A stretch of DNA of 40,594 nucleotides from Gammaproteobacteria bacterium (GTDB lineage Bacteria > Pseudomonadota > Gammaproteobacteria > Poriferisulfidales > Poriferisulfidaceae): NCBI GenBank assembly GCA_028819565.1, contig JAPPLD010000010.1, forward strand, positions 1 to 40,594, written 5' to 3'. Position numbers and translations under genes: made by a program. Positions 231 to 40,348 of the stretch are shown in pieces (positions within the stretch are counted from its first letter, which is position 1; each line of letters starts with the position of its first letter). The notes below the pieces were generated by a model that worked only from the letters and a program-made list of their open reading frames with translations, was not told where the DNA came from and did not search any database.

Positions 231-304
231 TGGAGCGGGTGAAGGGAATCGAACCCTCGTTATCAGCTTGGGAAGCTGAAGTTCTACCATTGAACTACAC
301 CCGC
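231..304 (-). tRNA. tRNA-Gly, anticodon CCC
   Basis: Read on the minus strand, a complete cloverleaf folds. The acceptor GCGGGTG pairs with CACCCGC. The D arm is GTTC/GAAC. The anticodon stem TCAGC/GCTGA encloses the loop TTCCCAA, so the anticodon is CCC. The T loop is TTCGATT, and CCA is encoded. It closely resembles the E. coli glyU type. Total length is 74 nt including CCA. Confidence 0.95.
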
Positions 305-420
305 TTGAGTTTTATTCTACTTGGTGTAATCCCGGAGTGCGCTCTACTCGCTAGTACGCGTCATGCCAAGCTCTCGCTTTGGTGAACCCAGAAAAATTAT
401 TATGATGATTTACCCTCAAA

Positions 421-532
421 GTCATAATAACAGGTCGTCTTATTCTGATTTCGATAATAACCGGCCATGAAAGGGGTTGTTATTATTATTTAGACGTGAA
501 ATAATAATAACGAGTTTGGTTATTTTGATTTC
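421..532 (+). promoter_or_regulatory. AT-rich control region of the fic gene with perfect inverted repeat over the promoter
   Basis: A perfect 13-bp inverted repeat (479-491 GTTATTATTATTT and 499-511 AAATAATAATAAC, 7-nt spacer) overlaps a plausible sigma-70 promoter: TTGTTA at 477-482, 17-nt spacer, AATAAT at 500-505. The ATAATAAC half-site recurs at 424-431 and 454-461. A 13-nt direct repeat, TTATTCTGATTTC at 440-452 and TTATTTTGATTTC at 520-532, brackets the palindrome. The region is far richer in A+T than the surrounding genes. The layout suggests an operator, probably bound by the winged helix of the Fic protein it precedes. That binding is inference. Confidence 0.6.
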
Positions 533-548
533 TGCAACAGGAGAAATC

Positions 549-1709
549 ATGAGGCGCGGTCCGACCGGTCAATTCAACATCACCCCCACTGGTGGTGAAA
601 CGGTGCGTGCCTTCGTGCCCAACCCTCTCCCGCCCGAACCTGCGCTGGATCTAGGCGTTCTTCAAGAATCCATGGAAAAGGCATTGCTGGCACTGGGCCA
701 ACTAGATAGCCTGTCCACGCTCCTGCCCAATGTACACCAGTTCCTCTACACCTATGTGCGCAAGGAAGCAGTCCTTTCTTCCCAGATCGAGGGCACTCAA
801 TCCACCTTGTCAGACCTTCTGCTCTTCGAACTTGATGAGGCACCGGGCACCCCCCTGGACGATGTCATCGAGGTTTCGAACTATGCCGCGGCATTGGAAC
901 ATGGGATTTCTCGACTGAAGGGCGGATTCCCGCTGAGCAACCGACTTGTCCGGGAAGTCCACGGCAAGTTGCTGAGTCACGGCCGCGGCAGCGAGAAGAT
1001 GCCCGGGGAATTTCGCAAGACGCAGAATTGGATCGGCGGAACCCGCCCCGGAAGGGCCCGTTTCGTGCCTCCGCCCCCTCATGCCGTTGAAGACTGCATG
1101 ACGGATTTGGAGCGGTTCTACCACAAAGAAGACGAAGGATTGCCAGCACTCTTGCGTGCGGGCCTTGCCCACGTCCAGTTCGAAACCATCCATCCATTTT
1201 TGGACGGCAACGGTCGAGTCGGTCGACTGATGATTACTCTTGCCCTGTATGACGCGGGCACCATACACCAGCCACTTCTATACCTGAGTCTCTACTTCAA
1301 GCAACACCGGGACCGCTACTACGCGCTCCTCGACGAAGTGCGGGAAAACGGCGACTGGGAAGCATGGCTCGAATTCTTTTTTGACGGCGTGGCGCAAACC
1401 GCCCAAGAAGCCGTCTCAACTGCCCAGCGCCTGCTTAACATGTTCCAGCAGGATCAAGCAAAGATCCAACAGGAAGGGCGCAGGGCCGGGTCAGCACTAC
1501 GAGTTCATCAGGTGCTGCAAAAACGCCCCATAGCATCCCTTCGAGAGATGGCCCGTGGCACGGGCCTTTCATTCGCTGCCGCTGCTGCAGGGGTGAAACT
1601 GCTGGAGCAACTCGGCATTGTGCGCGAACTGACCGAAAAAAAAAGGAACCGTTTCTTCGGCCATCAGCAGTACTTGGACGTTCTTGCCGAAGAATCCGAG
1701 GTGCCGTAA
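549..1709 (+). CDS. Class II Fic domain protein with C-terminal winged-helix domain
   Basis: A 386-residue Fic protein. The catalytic motif is intact (HPFLDGNGRVGR, residues 215-226), so the protein should be able to transfer AMP or a related nucleotide from NTP to a hydroxyl on a target protein. An N-terminal inhibitory helix motif SSQIEG (77-82, pattern S-x3-E-G) marks it as class II, where the glutamate blocks the active site until displaced. Residues about 315-375 look like a winged helix (LREMARGTGLSFAAAAAGVK is its recognition region). ATG 549 was chosen over an in-frame start at 477 because AGGAG sits at 539-543 and because the earlier start would place the operator palindrome inside the gene. 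It stands alone with no antitoxin-like partner. The target is unknown; autoregulation through the upstream palindrome is likely. Confidence 0.92.
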   Translation: MRRGPTGQFNITPTGGETVRAFVPNPLPPEPALDLGVLQESMEKALLALGQLDSLSTLLPNVHQFLYTYVRKEAVLSSQIEGTQSTLSDLLLFELDEAPGTPLDDVIEVSNYAAALEHGISRLKGGFPLSNRLVREVHGKLLSHGRGSEKMPGEFRKTQNWIGGTRPGRARFVPPPPHAVEDCMTDLERFYHKEDEGLPALLRAGLAHVQFETIHPFLDGNGRVGRLMITLALYDAGTIHQPLLYLSLYFKQHRDRYYALLDEVRENGDWEAWLEFFFDGVAQTAQEAVSTAQRLLNMFQQDQAKIQQEGRRAGSALRVHQVLQKRPIASLREMARGTGLSFAAAAAGVKLLEQLGIVRELTEKKRNRFFGHQQYLDVLAEESEVP

Positions 1710-19855: not shown

Positions 19856-20113
19856 CTACTTGATCAGACCCAGTCTTTTCATGTCCTTTTCTGACCATCC
19901 AATATCTTTTAGAAGTGCCTTCAGGAGGCGTGGCGTATAAGTTTTCTTCCTGGTGTGCCAGTGGATGGTAACCTTTCTTCCATCAGGGTGACGGTACGTG
20001 CGAATGGCACTCTTGGAATAGGTTTCTTTGAAACCATCCTTTTTGAGGGCCTTTACAAGTGTGTCTGCATGGATTGCCCTGATCTGGCTCCATGCTTCGG
20101 AGCTCAAACTCAC
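19856..20113 (-). CDS. hicA: HicA/YcfA-like toxin of a type II toxin-antitoxin pair
   Basis: An 85-residue protein starting at a GTG that overlaps the hicB stop by 4 nt. The core is a double-stranded-RNA-binding-like fold: helix HADTLVKALKKDGF, strands TYRHPDGRKVTIHWH, helix PRLLKALLKDIGW, tail SEKDMKRLGLIK. HicA toxins usually carry a GSHH-type catalytic histidine before the RHPDG strand. Here that segment reads KSAIRTYRHPDG, so the usual histidine is missing, while a HWH cluster follows. It may use a different residue or be inactive. The expected role is cleavage of mRNA until neutralised by the partner. Gene order (antitoxin first) matches one class of hic loci. Confidence 0.72.
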   Translation of the reverse strand: MSLSSEAWSQIRAIHADTLVKALKKDGFKETYSKSAIRTYRHPDGRKVTIHWHTRKKTYTPRLLKALLKDIGWSEKDMKRLGLIK

Positions 20114-20436
20114 GCCGCGATGGACAGTTCGCGAATGTAGGAGTGGGGAATGTTTTGCTGTCTGGGTTGTTTTTCCGGGGCAGGCAATGCTTCATAAGTG
20201 GTTTCTTCGTCTATGCAACCAATGGGAATCGGGTCTCCGTATTTTAAGATCGTATGGATATGCTGGTCTATGGCAATCTGACAATTTTCCAGCGCCTCCT
20301 GTTCCGAATCGCCTGACACATGAACGCCCTTGAGTTCAGGGCAAAAAGCATGAAAAGAATCTTCGTCCGGCTCGACAAAAATCCGCACCTTGATTTTGAG
20401 TTCCTTCGCGGGAACCCTACCGAATAAATTGAACAC
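20110..20436 (-). CDS. hicB: HicB-family antitoxin
   Basis: A 108-residue protein whose first about 70 residues match the partial-RNase-H-like HicB fold: KIKVRIFVEPDEDSFHAFCP, ELKGVHVSGDSEQEALENCQ, AIDQHIHTILKYGDPIP. The C-terminal tail is proline- and glutamine-rich and shows no ribbon-helix-helix or helix-turn-helix, so direct DNA binding is not evident. It precedes and overlaps the hicA-like gene by 4 nt, which implies coupled translation in a fixed ratio. The start is a GTG at 20436; GGAG at 20449-20452 and GGGAAG nearer the start are the only upstream purine-rich elements. Confidence 0.8.
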   Translation of the reverse strand: MFNLFGRVPAKELKIKVRIFVEPDEDSFHAFCPELKGVHVSGDSEQEALENCQIAIDQHIHTILKYGDPIPIGCIDEETTYEALPAPEKQPRQQNIPHSYIRELSIAA

Positions 20437-38077: not shown

Positions 38078-38136
38078 TTTCAAGAGAAAGATTTCTAATC
38101 TCTGGAAAGCGTTTAGGAAATATTGACAATGGTCAA
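38048..38136 (+). repeat. Pair of TTGAC-N4-GTCA palindromes flanking the leader (putative operators)
   Basis: Site 1, TTGACAATAGTCA (38048-38060), overlaps the -35. Site 2, TTGACAATGGTCAA (38123-38136), is a perfect TTGAC-N4-GTCAA palindrome covering the start codon. The two share 12 of 13 bases and lie 75 bp apart, about seven helical turns. The arrangement suggests looping repression by the gene's own winged helix. Binding is inference. Confidence 0.55.
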
Positions 38137-40348
38137 GATCCGTACCCGAAGCGAGCAAATCAGGAATTACATTCTCGACCAGGTCGAGGAGTCGCCGGAG
38201 GCCGTGGCAAAGGAAACAGCGGAGAGATTCGGGATTTCTCGCCAAGCCGCGAACAAGCATCTGAGGCGGCTCTGCGAGGAGGGAATTCTTGAGCAGTCCG
38301 GAAAGACGAACGCGACCCGGTATCGGCTGGCAACATTGTCCAGTTGGACCGGTCGTTACGAGATTCAGCCGAAGTTGACGGAAGAAGTTGTTTGGATGCA
38401 AAACATTCAAGATCAACTCGGCTCTCTGCCAGATAACGTAGAAGGCATTTGGTGCCACGGCTTCACCGAAATGTTCAACAACGCAATCGACCATTCCGAC
38501 GGTTCCATGATCCGGGTTGGAATCACTCGAACCATAGTGGGGATAGAAATGTGGATCCACGATGACGGGTGCGGAATCTTCAGGAAAATACAAAAAGCAT
38601 TGGAGTTGCCGGACGAGCGGCATGCCATTTTGGAATTGTCGAAGGGCAAGCTGACGACCGACCCCGACCGTCATACCGGCGAAGGAATTTTCTTCACGTC
38701 CAGGATGTTCGATGAATTCGCCATTTTCTCAGGCGGCATCTATTTCTCCCATGAATTCGGGAAGAAAGAAGACTGGGTTCTGGAAACAGATCAGGATTTG
38801 GGCGAGACTTCCGTCTTCATGAAGTTGAAAAACACAACGAAAAGAGCAAAAAAAGAGATTTTTGATCGATTCACTTCCGGAGAAGATTTCGGGTTCACTA
38901 AAACGATTATTCCCGTTCGGATGGTTCAGCTTGGAGAGGACGAGTTGATCTCCCGCTCCCAAGCCAAGCGGCTCCTGGCTCGCGTGGAGAAGTTTCAGAA
39001 AGTGTTGTTTGACTTCCAGGGAGTAAAAGACATCGGGCCGGCATTCGCAGATGAGATCTTCCGGGTCTTCGCTCGTCAACACCCGGAAATCGAACTGGCT
39101 CCGATCAACACGGGTCCGGAAACAGAAAAAATGATCGCAAGGGCAGTAAATGTGGAAGCCCATGTTGTGTCCGGCTCCCCCACCGTCAATGTACAAGTTG
39201 AAGTCGTTCCACTCGAAGCCGGTCCACCATTGTCTGAAGCCAGCATCAAAATCCAGGAGTACGTTTCTCAGTCGATTGGGGCGCGCAAGCCGGTCGGGTA
39301 TGACCCGTCATTCCTCTTGTCGTACCAGCCTAACGACACGTTCTACCTCTCGCAGGAGGAACGCGAACATCTATGGGAAACGGGACAGTCAGGCGAATCC
39401 GGACAACCCGCTGGGGTCCATGCCAAGAACATTTTAGACAAGCTACTAATCGACCTGTCGTGGAACTCCAGCCGCCTTGAAGGCAATACCTATTCCCTGC
39501 TTGAAACCAGCCGCCTGCTTGAGCTCGGTGAGGAAGCGGAAGGGAAAAAGCGAAGCGACGCGCAGATGATCCTCAACCATAAGGATGCCATCGAATTTCT
39601 CGTCGAAGCGGTGGAACACATCGGCTTCAACCGGCACACCCTCCTCAACCTTCATGCGCTGCTGGCGAACAACCTGCTACCCGACCCCGACGCGGAAGGA
39701 CGGCTTCGACATGCCAACGTCGGAATTGGGGGATCAGTCTTCCATCCATTGGAGACCCCGCAACTCATTGAAGAACATTTTGACCGAATCCTCGCCACCG
39801 CCTCGGCAATCGAGGACCCCTTTGAGCGAGCCTTCTTCGCGATGGTGCAAATTCCCTACTTACAGGCATTTGACGACGTCAACAAGCGGGTGTCGCGATT
39901 GGCCGTGAATATTCCGTTGATCCAGAGCAACCTATCGCCGCTGTCTTTCGAGGATGTTTCCCGGCGGCTTTACACCGAGGCCGTGCTCGGCGTGTACGAG
40001 TTGAACCGGGTTGAATTGCTCAAGGATGTATTTCTTTGGGCCTACCAGCGGTCGGCCGTCCGCTACGCCGCCATACGGCAATCCATTGGCGAACCCGACC
40101 CGTTTCGCATGCGGCACCGAACTGCGTTGCGCGAAGTCGTCGGCATGGTCGTCCGCCAACGCATGAACAAGCAGCAAGCCGCAACCCATGTCCATACATG
40201 GGCACAAACACAGGTGGATGAACCGGAATATTCCCGCTTCTGCGAAATTGCCGAAAAGATCCTGCTGGGGCTACATGAAGGAAACGTGGCGCCTTACAGA
40301 ATTCGGTTATCCGAATTTACGGCATGGCAGGAACGATGGGGAACCTGA
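38129..40348 (+). CDS. Multidomain regulator: winged helix + GHKL ATPase + STAS-like (DUF4325-like) + degenerate Fic domain
   Basis: A 739-residue chain. Residues 1-70 are a winged helix (AERFGISRQAANKHLRRLCE is the HTH). 85-235 is a GHKL ATPase, with N-box EMFNNAIDHS (114-123), G1 DDGCGIF (145-151) and G2 TGEGIFFT (183-190). 255-340 matches the STAS-like DUF4325 module (ISRSQAKRLLARVEKF, VLFDFQGVKDIGPAFADEIF). 375-739 is a Fic protein of the helical-bundle type, with inhibitory-helix motif SSRLEGN (447-453) and LLNLHALLANNLLPDP. The Fic catalytic motif is degenerate: 579-590 read QAFDDVNKRVSR, so the catalytic His is Gln579 and the phosphate-binding GNG is VNK. ATG 38129 is preferred to TTG 38123 because AGGA at 38115-38118 is then 10 nt away. 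Expected to be cytoplasmic; function unknown. Adjacent to a possible insertion sequence. Confidence 0.85.
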   Translation: MVKIRTRSEQIRNYILDQVEESPEAVAKETAERFGISRQAANKHLRRLCEEGILEQSGKTNATRYRLATLSSWTGRYEIQPKLTEEVVWMQNIQDQLGSLPDNVEGIWCHGFTEMFNNAIDHSDGSMIRVGITRTIVGIEMWIHDDGCGIFRKIQKALELPDERHAILELSKGKLTTDPDRHTGEGIFFTSRMFDEFAIFSGGIYFSHEFGKKEDWVLETDQDLGETSVFMKLKNTTKRAKKEIFDRFTSGEDFGFTKTIIPVRMVQLGEDELISRSQAKRLLARVEKFQKVLFDFQGVKDIGPAFADEIFRVFARQHPEIELAPINTGPETEKMIARAVNVEAHVVSGSPTVNVQVEVVPLEAGPPLSEASIKIQEYVSQSIGARKPVGYDPSFLLSYQPNDTFYLSQEEREHLWETGQSGESGQPAGVHAKNILDKLLIDLSWNSSRLEGNTYSLLETSRLLELGEEAEGKKRSDAQMILNHKDAIEFLVEAVEHIGFNRHTLLNLHALLANNLLPDPDAEGRLRHANVGIGGSVFHPLETPQLIEEHFDRILATASAIEDPFERAFFAMVQIPYLQAFDDVNKRVSRLAVNIPLIQSNLSPLSFEDVSRRLYTEAVLGVYELNRVELLKDVFLWAYQRSAVRYAAIRQSIGEPDPFRMRHRTALREVVGMVVRQRMNKQQAATHVHTWAQTQVDEPEYSRFCEIAEKILLGLHEGNVAPYRIRLSEFTAWQERWGT

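What the first reader, a model, noticed from the sequence alone, without database searches (positions are those of the whole stretch)
421..548. Perfect 13-bp palindrome laid exactly over the fic promoter, with extra half-sites
Seen: arms 479-491 and 499-511, promoter hexamers at 477-482 and 500-505, ATAATAAC repeats at 424 and 454, and a 13-nt near-exact direct repeat at 440 and 520. Known: Fic proteins with a C-terminal winged helix are plausible autorepressors. Inference: a multi-site operator giving tight or cooperative autorepression of an AMP-transferase.
Basis: partly seen in the sequence, partly recalled or inferred. Interest (0 to 1): 0.55.

Follow-up and report, generated by a model that had tools for sequence, protein, structure and literature searches.

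The report
Self-operator array before SoFic-type toxin gene
Upstream of a bacterial AMP-transferase gene (a SoFic-type phage-defence toxin with its own DNA-binding tail) lies a set of repeated mirror-image DNA sites whose spacing recurs before more than a hundred related genes, suggesting that these toxins switch themselves off by binding their own control region.

Summary
The palindrome is exact (479-491/499-511; 0 of 1000 shuffles reach it) and the extra half-sites are real. In the family a unit has four half-sites (A forward, B reverse, C forward 40/41 bp after A, D reverse 30/31 bp after B); here the last D is decayed. With no sequence assumed, direct repeats at 40, 41, 30 and 31 bp stand far above background before 148 homologues; 69 later loci peak at 31 and 41 bp. 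Wrong spacings fit far less often, and 17 short Fic genes without the DNA-binding domain show no peak (an imperfect control). Half-sites differ between loci, and the window's 12-base core occurs nowhere else in its 1.8-Mb assembly: a private operator, most likely for the Fic protein's own winged helix. Fic-HTH autorepression is known (CccR); I found no report of a shared operator geometry for SoFic-type genes. Not shown: binding, repression, coevolution (tests weak or negative); the window's own region fails the four-site fit. Best reading: cooperative autorepression of an AMP-transferase toxin.

The parts
400..412 (+). half-site A' (TTATGATGATTTA), degenerate forward site of the upstream 80-bp unit
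   Evidence: aligns with 480-492 at exactly 80 bp
424..431 (-). half-site B' (ATAATAAC), reverse orientation
   Evidence: kept in L005
440..452 (+). half-site C' (TTATTCTGATTTC), forward; 40 bp before A
   Evidence: 12/13 identical to 520-532
454..461 (-). half-site D' (ATAATAAC), reverse; 30 bp after B'
477..482 (+). -35-like hexamer TTGTTA
   Evidence: consensus scan only
479..491 (+). half-site A, left arm of the perfect palindrome GTTATTATTATTT
   Evidence: its 12-base core occurs only in the two arms of this site in the held 1.8-Mb assembly
499..511 (-). half-site B, right arm AAATAATAATAAC
500..505 (+). -10-like hexamer AATAAT, TG before it
   Evidence: consensus scan only
520..532 (+). 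half-site C (TTATTTTGATTTC), 40 bp after A
   Evidence: 40/41-bp direct repeats recur in homologues
536..540 (-). position of half-site D (AACAG, decayed), 30 bp after B, next to the likely ribosome-binding sequence
   Evidence: position only (30/31-bp rule); sequence match poor
549..1709 (+). fic: SoFic-type class II AMP-transferase, 386 aa, HPFLDGNGRVGR and SSQIEG motifs intact
   Evidence: Pfam Fic_N and Fic; PADLOC SoFic E 5e-118; AF2 model against SoFic structures; motif names recalled
1476..1664 (+). C-terminal winged helix-turn-helix, residues 310-372, putative recognition helix 342-354
   Evidence: AF2 model, block pLDDT 80-96 there
231..304 (-). tRNA-Gly (CCC), divergent from fic
   Evidence: ARAGORN

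Best explanation
The array is the private, multi-half-site operator of the fic gene. The Fic protein, as a dimer, binds it with its C-terminal winged helix and represses its own transcription. One dimer would take A/B, over or just beside the core promoter, and another C/D next to the ribosome-binding region; in this genome a second 80-bp copy upstream adds further dimers, so repression should be steep. The result is a one-gene toxin and repressor: the AMP-transferase is kept low until binding is lost or the protein is diluted. Shown here: the sites, their geometry, its recurrence in many hosts, and uniqueness of the core in the assembly. Inferred: that Fic is the binder, that it acts as a dimer, that binding represses, that it is cooperative.
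For: Inverted repeats beat all 30 dinucleotide shuffles in 59 of 150 fic upstream regions (66 of 151 in an earlier run), against 19 of 152 downstream and 8 of 79 upstream of other ORFs in the same loci. Direct 8-mer repeats (7 of 8 or better), no sequence model: 41 bp in 64 of 148 loci, 40 bp in 34, 30 bp in 29, 31 bp in 19, against about 4-6 in shuffles. In 69 further non-redundant loci fetched later: 31 bp 29, 41 bp 23, 62 bp 15, 18 and 42 bp 9 each, 40 bp 7, 30 bp 4, against about 1-3. Four-site fit beats all 9 dinucleotide shuffles in 129 of 206 loci (42 of 66 new), against 32-40 of 206 for four wrong spacings and 20.6 expected. Seventeen short Fic genes show 1, 1, 0 and 0 hits at 30, 31, 40 and 41 bp. 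Only two copies of the 12-base core in the assembly, both here, which speaks against a global regulator. No regulator gene recurs beside fic in 107 cellular loci: the commonest neighbour is shared with 8 others and looks like a restriction gene. No clear G-U bias in arm mismatches. CccR precedent, with footprint, gel shift and lacZ fusion (PMC9755527, passages).
Against: The window's own upstream region does not pass the four-site fit (score 56.8, 10 of 19 shuffles reach it), nor does L005 (7 of 19), and L006 only nearly (1 of 19); in the window only the A/B palindrome and the 80-bp duplication are significant. Coevolution of half-site and recognition helix is not established: nearest-pair contrasts negative, nearest-neighbour prediction negative, mutual information weak (p = 0.008), partial correlation puts F342 and A343 at ranks 9 and 7 of 345 but the window 338-351 only at 26 of 373. 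83 of 206 loci do not pass the fit. Wrong spacings still pass somewhat more often than expected. Many of the 17 short Fic controls seem to be second genes of operons, so their upstream stretch looks coding: a weak control. In phage-contig loci a neighbour that I read as ParB-like or a DNA methylase recurs (up to 22 other loci), so another binder is not excluded there. Of 8 named plasmid loci, 4 are reached by 4 or fewer of 99 shuffles. No binding data.
Confidence: 0.74

Rival explanations
1. A host regulator other than Fic owns the sites, Fic being merely its target gene.
For: Binding by Fic is not shown; coevolution tests are weak or negative; the short-Fic control is imperfect; phage loci share a DNA-acting neighbour.
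Against: The core occurs only here in the assembly; half-sites differ between loci while the spacing recurs in hosts whose record titles span many phyla; no regulator gene recurs beside fic in 107 cellular loci.
Confidence: 0.14
2. The palindromes act as RNA hairpins (attenuator, terminator or ribosome-site occlusion).
For: The arms could pair in RNA, and one weak terminator-like match lies at 462-479.
Against: Direct repeats at 40/41 and 30/31 bp have no evident role in hairpins; mismatches show no clear G-U excess: GU/(GU+AC) 0.57 for A/B, 0.47 for C/D, 0.47 for B/C, 0.52 for A/D; the window stem is all A-U but for one G-C pair.
Confidence: 0.04
3. Fic binds the array but mainly to be held in an inactive (or active) state on DNA, the array being an allosteric depot rather than a repressor site.
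For: CbFic2 (de)AMPylation is induced by DNA (PMC10628234, title and passages); the C-terminal domain of Sofic differs between apo and ATP-bound structures (PMC12249575, first of four parts and passages).
Against: In the 123 fitted loci the last site ends a median 13 bp before the start codon, the place expected of a repressor; CccR represses.
Confidence: 0.08

Closest known systems
CccR of Yersinia pseudotuberculosis (PDB 7XUX)
   Same: Fic domain plus C-terminal HTH; binds inverted repeats near -35/-10 of its own promoter and represses it (PMC9755527, passages read)
   Different: Footprint AGATAATCAT-N26-ATGATAATCT, one pair of sites; distant homologue (query residues 33-283 only, E 5e-16; TM 0.58-0.61). 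The window array has 13-bp arms 7 bp apart, four site positions per unit and two units
SoFic (Shewanella 3eqx/3zcn; E. coli H397 Sofic)
   Same: Among the closest solved folds with 7cb8 (TM 0.81-0.86); PADLOC SoFic E 5e-118; class II, intact motifs; phage-defence toxin
   Different: 25-26% identity; DNA binding by SoFic was said not to have been shown as of 2023 (PMC10628234); E. coli Sofic has a downstream antitoxin AS1 of 47 residues (PMC12249575); here the only small same-strand frames downstream (25 and 37 aa) are mechanical and were not compared with AS1
CbFic2 of Coxiella burnetii (8cil)
   Same: Fic plus winged helix that binds DNA (PMC10628234, passages)
   Different: Random DNA was used, no specific site known; DNA binding is linked to enzyme activity, not to an operator
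Cooperative autoregulation of toxin-antitoxin operons (recalled; PMC7319586 seen in a listing)
   Same: Works like it: several inverted repeats before a toxin gene
   Different: Repressor and toxin would be one polypeptide; no separate antitoxin gene recognised

Membership tests
SoFic-type class II Fic protein | Fic_N and Fic domains, SoFic profile | tested here: met
   Pfam E 8e-26 and 1e-18; PADLOC SoFic E 5e-118
NCBIfam SoFic equivalog (NF046030) | score over the curated cut-off | tested here: not met
   152.7 bits against a cut-off of 550: not filed as that equivalog
SoFic-type class II Fic protein | intact HPFx(D/E)GN(G/K)R and N-terminal inhibitory (S/T)xxxE(G/N) motifs (recalled definitions) | tested here: met
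   HPFLDGNGR and SSQIEG in the translation; in an alignment of 58 sequences, window included, S77, E81, G82, P216 and L218-R223 are invariant, H215 and F217 at least 90%
SoFic-type class II Fic protein | AMP transfer activity | not testable with these tools
   none
Fic-HTH autorepressor (CccR-like) | C-terminal winged HTH | tested here: met
   AF2 model, full-length match to SoFic and 7cb8
Fic-HTH autorepressor (CccR-like) | inverted repeat at own promoter | tested here: inconclusive
   inverted repeat upstream of the gene present; the promoter is only a consensus match
Fic-HTH autorepressor (CccR-like) | CccR operator spacing (10-bp arms, 26 bp apart) | tested here: not met
   arms 13 bp, 7 apart; family spacing 40/41 and 30/31
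Fic-HTH autorepressor (CccR-like) | protein binds the site and represses | not testable with these tools
   none
Fic-HTH autorepressor (CccR-like) | half-site coevolves with recognition helix | tested here: inconclusive

The most novel reading that the evidence does not exclude
SoFic-type Fic enzymes form a very widespread class of one-gene toxin-repressor modules: each carries a private operator with a shared helical geometry (four half-sites, steps of about 30 and 40 bp), and operator binding also restrains the AMP-transferase, so that losing or diluting the operator (as when a phage destroys or outcopies host DNA) both derepresses and arms the toxin. That would answer how SoFic is kept silent without an antitoxin and how it is triggered.
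Probability: 0.2. Interest if true: 0.85.

Novelty: new variant of a known kind. Interest (0 to 1): 0.6.

Why it matters
How solitary SoFic-type toxins are silenced and set off is open: E. coli Sofic is toxic when expressed, and its C-terminal domain matters for toxicity (PMC12249575, first of four parts and passages). A recurrent operator gives that domain a job and an immediate assay. The spacing rule gives a signature for finding self-regulated Fic genes, and the changing half-sites in one frame offer a natural set for learning how a winged helix chooses its DNA.

Tried and rejected
Coevolution between half-site and winged helix was tried five ways: MI-APC with 96 loci put A343 x site position 7 first, but with 123 loci and sequence weighting the top pair was E263 in the Fic core and the recognition helix only modestly raised (p = 0.008 and 0.018); 69 disjoint nearest pairs negative; nearest-neighbour prediction negative; shift-tolerant partial correlation suggestive only. 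I therefore do not claim it. A neighbour-encoded regulator or antitoxin was sought and not recognised. RNA hairpins were tested and disfavoured. A regulon in the own genome was sought: the full palindrome (up to 3 mismatches) and the exact 12-base core occur nowhere else in the assembly; degenerate half-sites were not searched. Named plasmid loci gave mixed fits: Thermus 0/99, Cupriavidus 1/99, Agrobacterium 3/99, Haloarcula 4/99; Synechocystis 9/99, S. meliloti 24/99, Paracoccus 44/99, Rhodoferax 63/99 although its TTATTAAA repeats are plain to the eye; for S. meliloti and Paracoccus the start codon was my guess.

The 148 loci were not filtered for redundancy; the 211 (of 388) have at least 125 clean upstream bases and at most 70% ungapped upstream identity; 206 with long enough proteins were fitted. 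Of the 69 new loci 51 are phage contigs. Loci are related by descent, so shuffles do not give true probabilities. Of 20 short Fic loci and 21 winged-helix controls, 3 and 2 had no ORF found and were dropped. In one search eight of 94 loci (L007-L013, L016) were printed in the wrong orientation; mended.

Full report
What is there. The palindrome GTTATTATTATTT-agacgtg-AAATAATAATAAC lies at 479-511, 37 bp before ATG 549 of a 386-residue Fic protein. No shuffle of 1000 equals it. Forward sites step by 40 bp, and reverse sites by 30 within a unit; the whole forms an 80-bp unit present twice (40 of 61 identical, 0 of 300 shuffles at any offset of 30 or more). Both units are kept in the nearest relative L005 (91% protein identity); in L006 (76%) half-sites are kept in part.

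The gene. Pfam finds Fic_N and Fic; PADLOC's SoFic model scores E 5e-118; the SoFic equivalog of NCBIfam is far below its cut-off. An AlphaFold2 model (mean pLDDT 88.7) shows a C-terminal winged helix with helices 310-325, 331-338, 342-354 and strands 358-360 and 369-372. Nearest solved folds are a Mycobacterium marinum Fic protein (7cb8) and SoFic (TM 0.81-0.86 for the latter); CccR (7xux) is further off (0.58-0.61).

Homologues. Thirteen loci came from 12 related genomes, more from the class and phylum and from phage contigs. Inverted repeats beat all 30 shuffles in 59 of 150 fic upstream regions, against 19 of 152 downstream regions and 8 of 79 upstream regions of other ORFs. Asking only whether any 8-mer recurs at a given distance gives two sharp pairs of peaks: 40/41 bp (34 and 64 of 148 loci) and 30/31 bp (29 and 19), with a background near 5. 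Of the 69 non-redundant loci fetched afterwards, 51 from phage contigs, 29 have 31 bp, 23 have 41 bp and 15 have 62 bp, background 1-3; 18 and 42 bp reach 9 each, while 40 and 30 bp are weak (7 and 4). A fit of four half-sites with free sequence beats all 19 mononucleotide shuffles in 123 of 206 loci (37 of 66 new): 53 of 74 contig-scan loci and 32 of 48 phage loci. It beats all 9 dinucleotide shuffles in 129 of 206; with four sets of wrong spacings it does so in 32 to 40, 20.6 being expected. In the 123 loci the median distance from the first site to the start codon is 75 bp, from the last 13 bp.

Half-sites vary: TTATTAAAG-like in many, and for example GCTTTGAAA (L142, L145), AAGAAAGGAT (L074, L076), TTAATTAGC (L113) elsewhere. 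In 96 fitted loci, sites within a locus agree more than sites of different loci (position 5: 0.74 against 0.50), though the fit itself favours this. The window's core occurs in its assembly only in the two arms. So each locus seems to have a private specificity in a shared frame.

Controls. Seventeen short Fic genes (108-228 aa) show 1, 1, 0 and 0 hits at 30, 31, 40 and 41 bp; many of them look like second genes of operons, with coding sequence upstream, so this control is weak. Nineteen Fic genes of other types that I took, by eye, to end in a winged helix show inverted repeats at 21 and 23 bp (10 and 8 of 19, background 1) with other half-sites, and no 40/41 peak (1 and 2). One is in this genome: L003, a DUF4172-Fic gene (Pfam), has ATAATATCCGCA-taatc-TGCGGATATTAT ending one base before its ATG (read by eye). 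Thus private operators may be common to Fic-winged-helix genes, each type with its own geometry. In 107 cellular loci no gene recurs much beside fic except what I read, from memory, as type I restriction genes (commonest neighbour shared with 8 others); phage loci share ParB-like or methylase genes (up to 22 others).

How it most likely works. CccR, a Fic-HTH protein, represses its own promoter by binding two 10-bp arms 26 bp apart (PMC9755527, passages). SoFic DNA binding was called undemonstrated in 2023 (PMC10628234, passages). I infer that the window Fic binds its array as dimers and represses itself, steeply because of the doubled unit. In the window the centres of A/B and of C/D lie about 22 and 12 bp apart, a difference near one helical turn, so the same dimer could reach both on one face; this is speculation.

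What counts against. The window's own region, with a decayed D site, does not pass the four-site fit (10 of 19 shuffles reach it). Coevolution tests were weak or negative. Loci are related, so counts are not independent. No promoter is mapped and nothing has been measured.

Novelty. Searches of the held library (listings, with passages of five papers at most) showed CccR and CbFic2 as the Fic-HTH DNA-binding studies; a 2026 review of AMPylation (PMC12894286, passages) mentions CccR's autoregulation. I saw no report of a shared operator geometry for SoFic-type genes. Most subscription papers and all bioRxiv preprints are missing from that library. I rate it a new variant of a known kind.

Noticed in passing
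L003 (G000:C21) just upstream of ATG: A second Fic gene in this genome (DUF4172-Fic) has its own perfect 12-bp palindrome with a 5-bp spacer ending one base before its start codon (read).
   Followed up: partly
L033, L047, L059, L060, L072, L160, L010, L025; L438 (Synechocystis plasmid): This fic sits among type I restriction-modification genes in several loci (read from memory; annotated in L438).
   Followed up: no
L190-L250 (phage contigs): Some 20 phage-contig loci carry a SoFic-type fic beside genes that I read as ParB-like or DNA methylases, so the defence-type toxin also travels on phages.
   Followed up: no
window 38123-40348 +: A 741-aa protein with HTH_24, DUF4325 and Fic matches over cut-off and a histidine-kinase-like ATPase match below cut-off; SoFic profile E 2e-16.
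   Followed up: no
window 19856-20436 -: HicA toxin next to a HicB-like match below its cut-off: a likely toxin-antitoxin pair.
   Followed up: no
L016, L158 upstream of fic: Tandem arrays with a 40-bp period before the start codon, as if the operator unit can multiply; the later set of loci, mostly phage contigs, also shows a 62-bp peak, twice 31.
   Followed up: no
L440 (Haloarcula hispanica plasmid): The same fic type occurs in an archaeon, with a four-site fit reached by 4 of 99 shuffles.
   Followed up: partly
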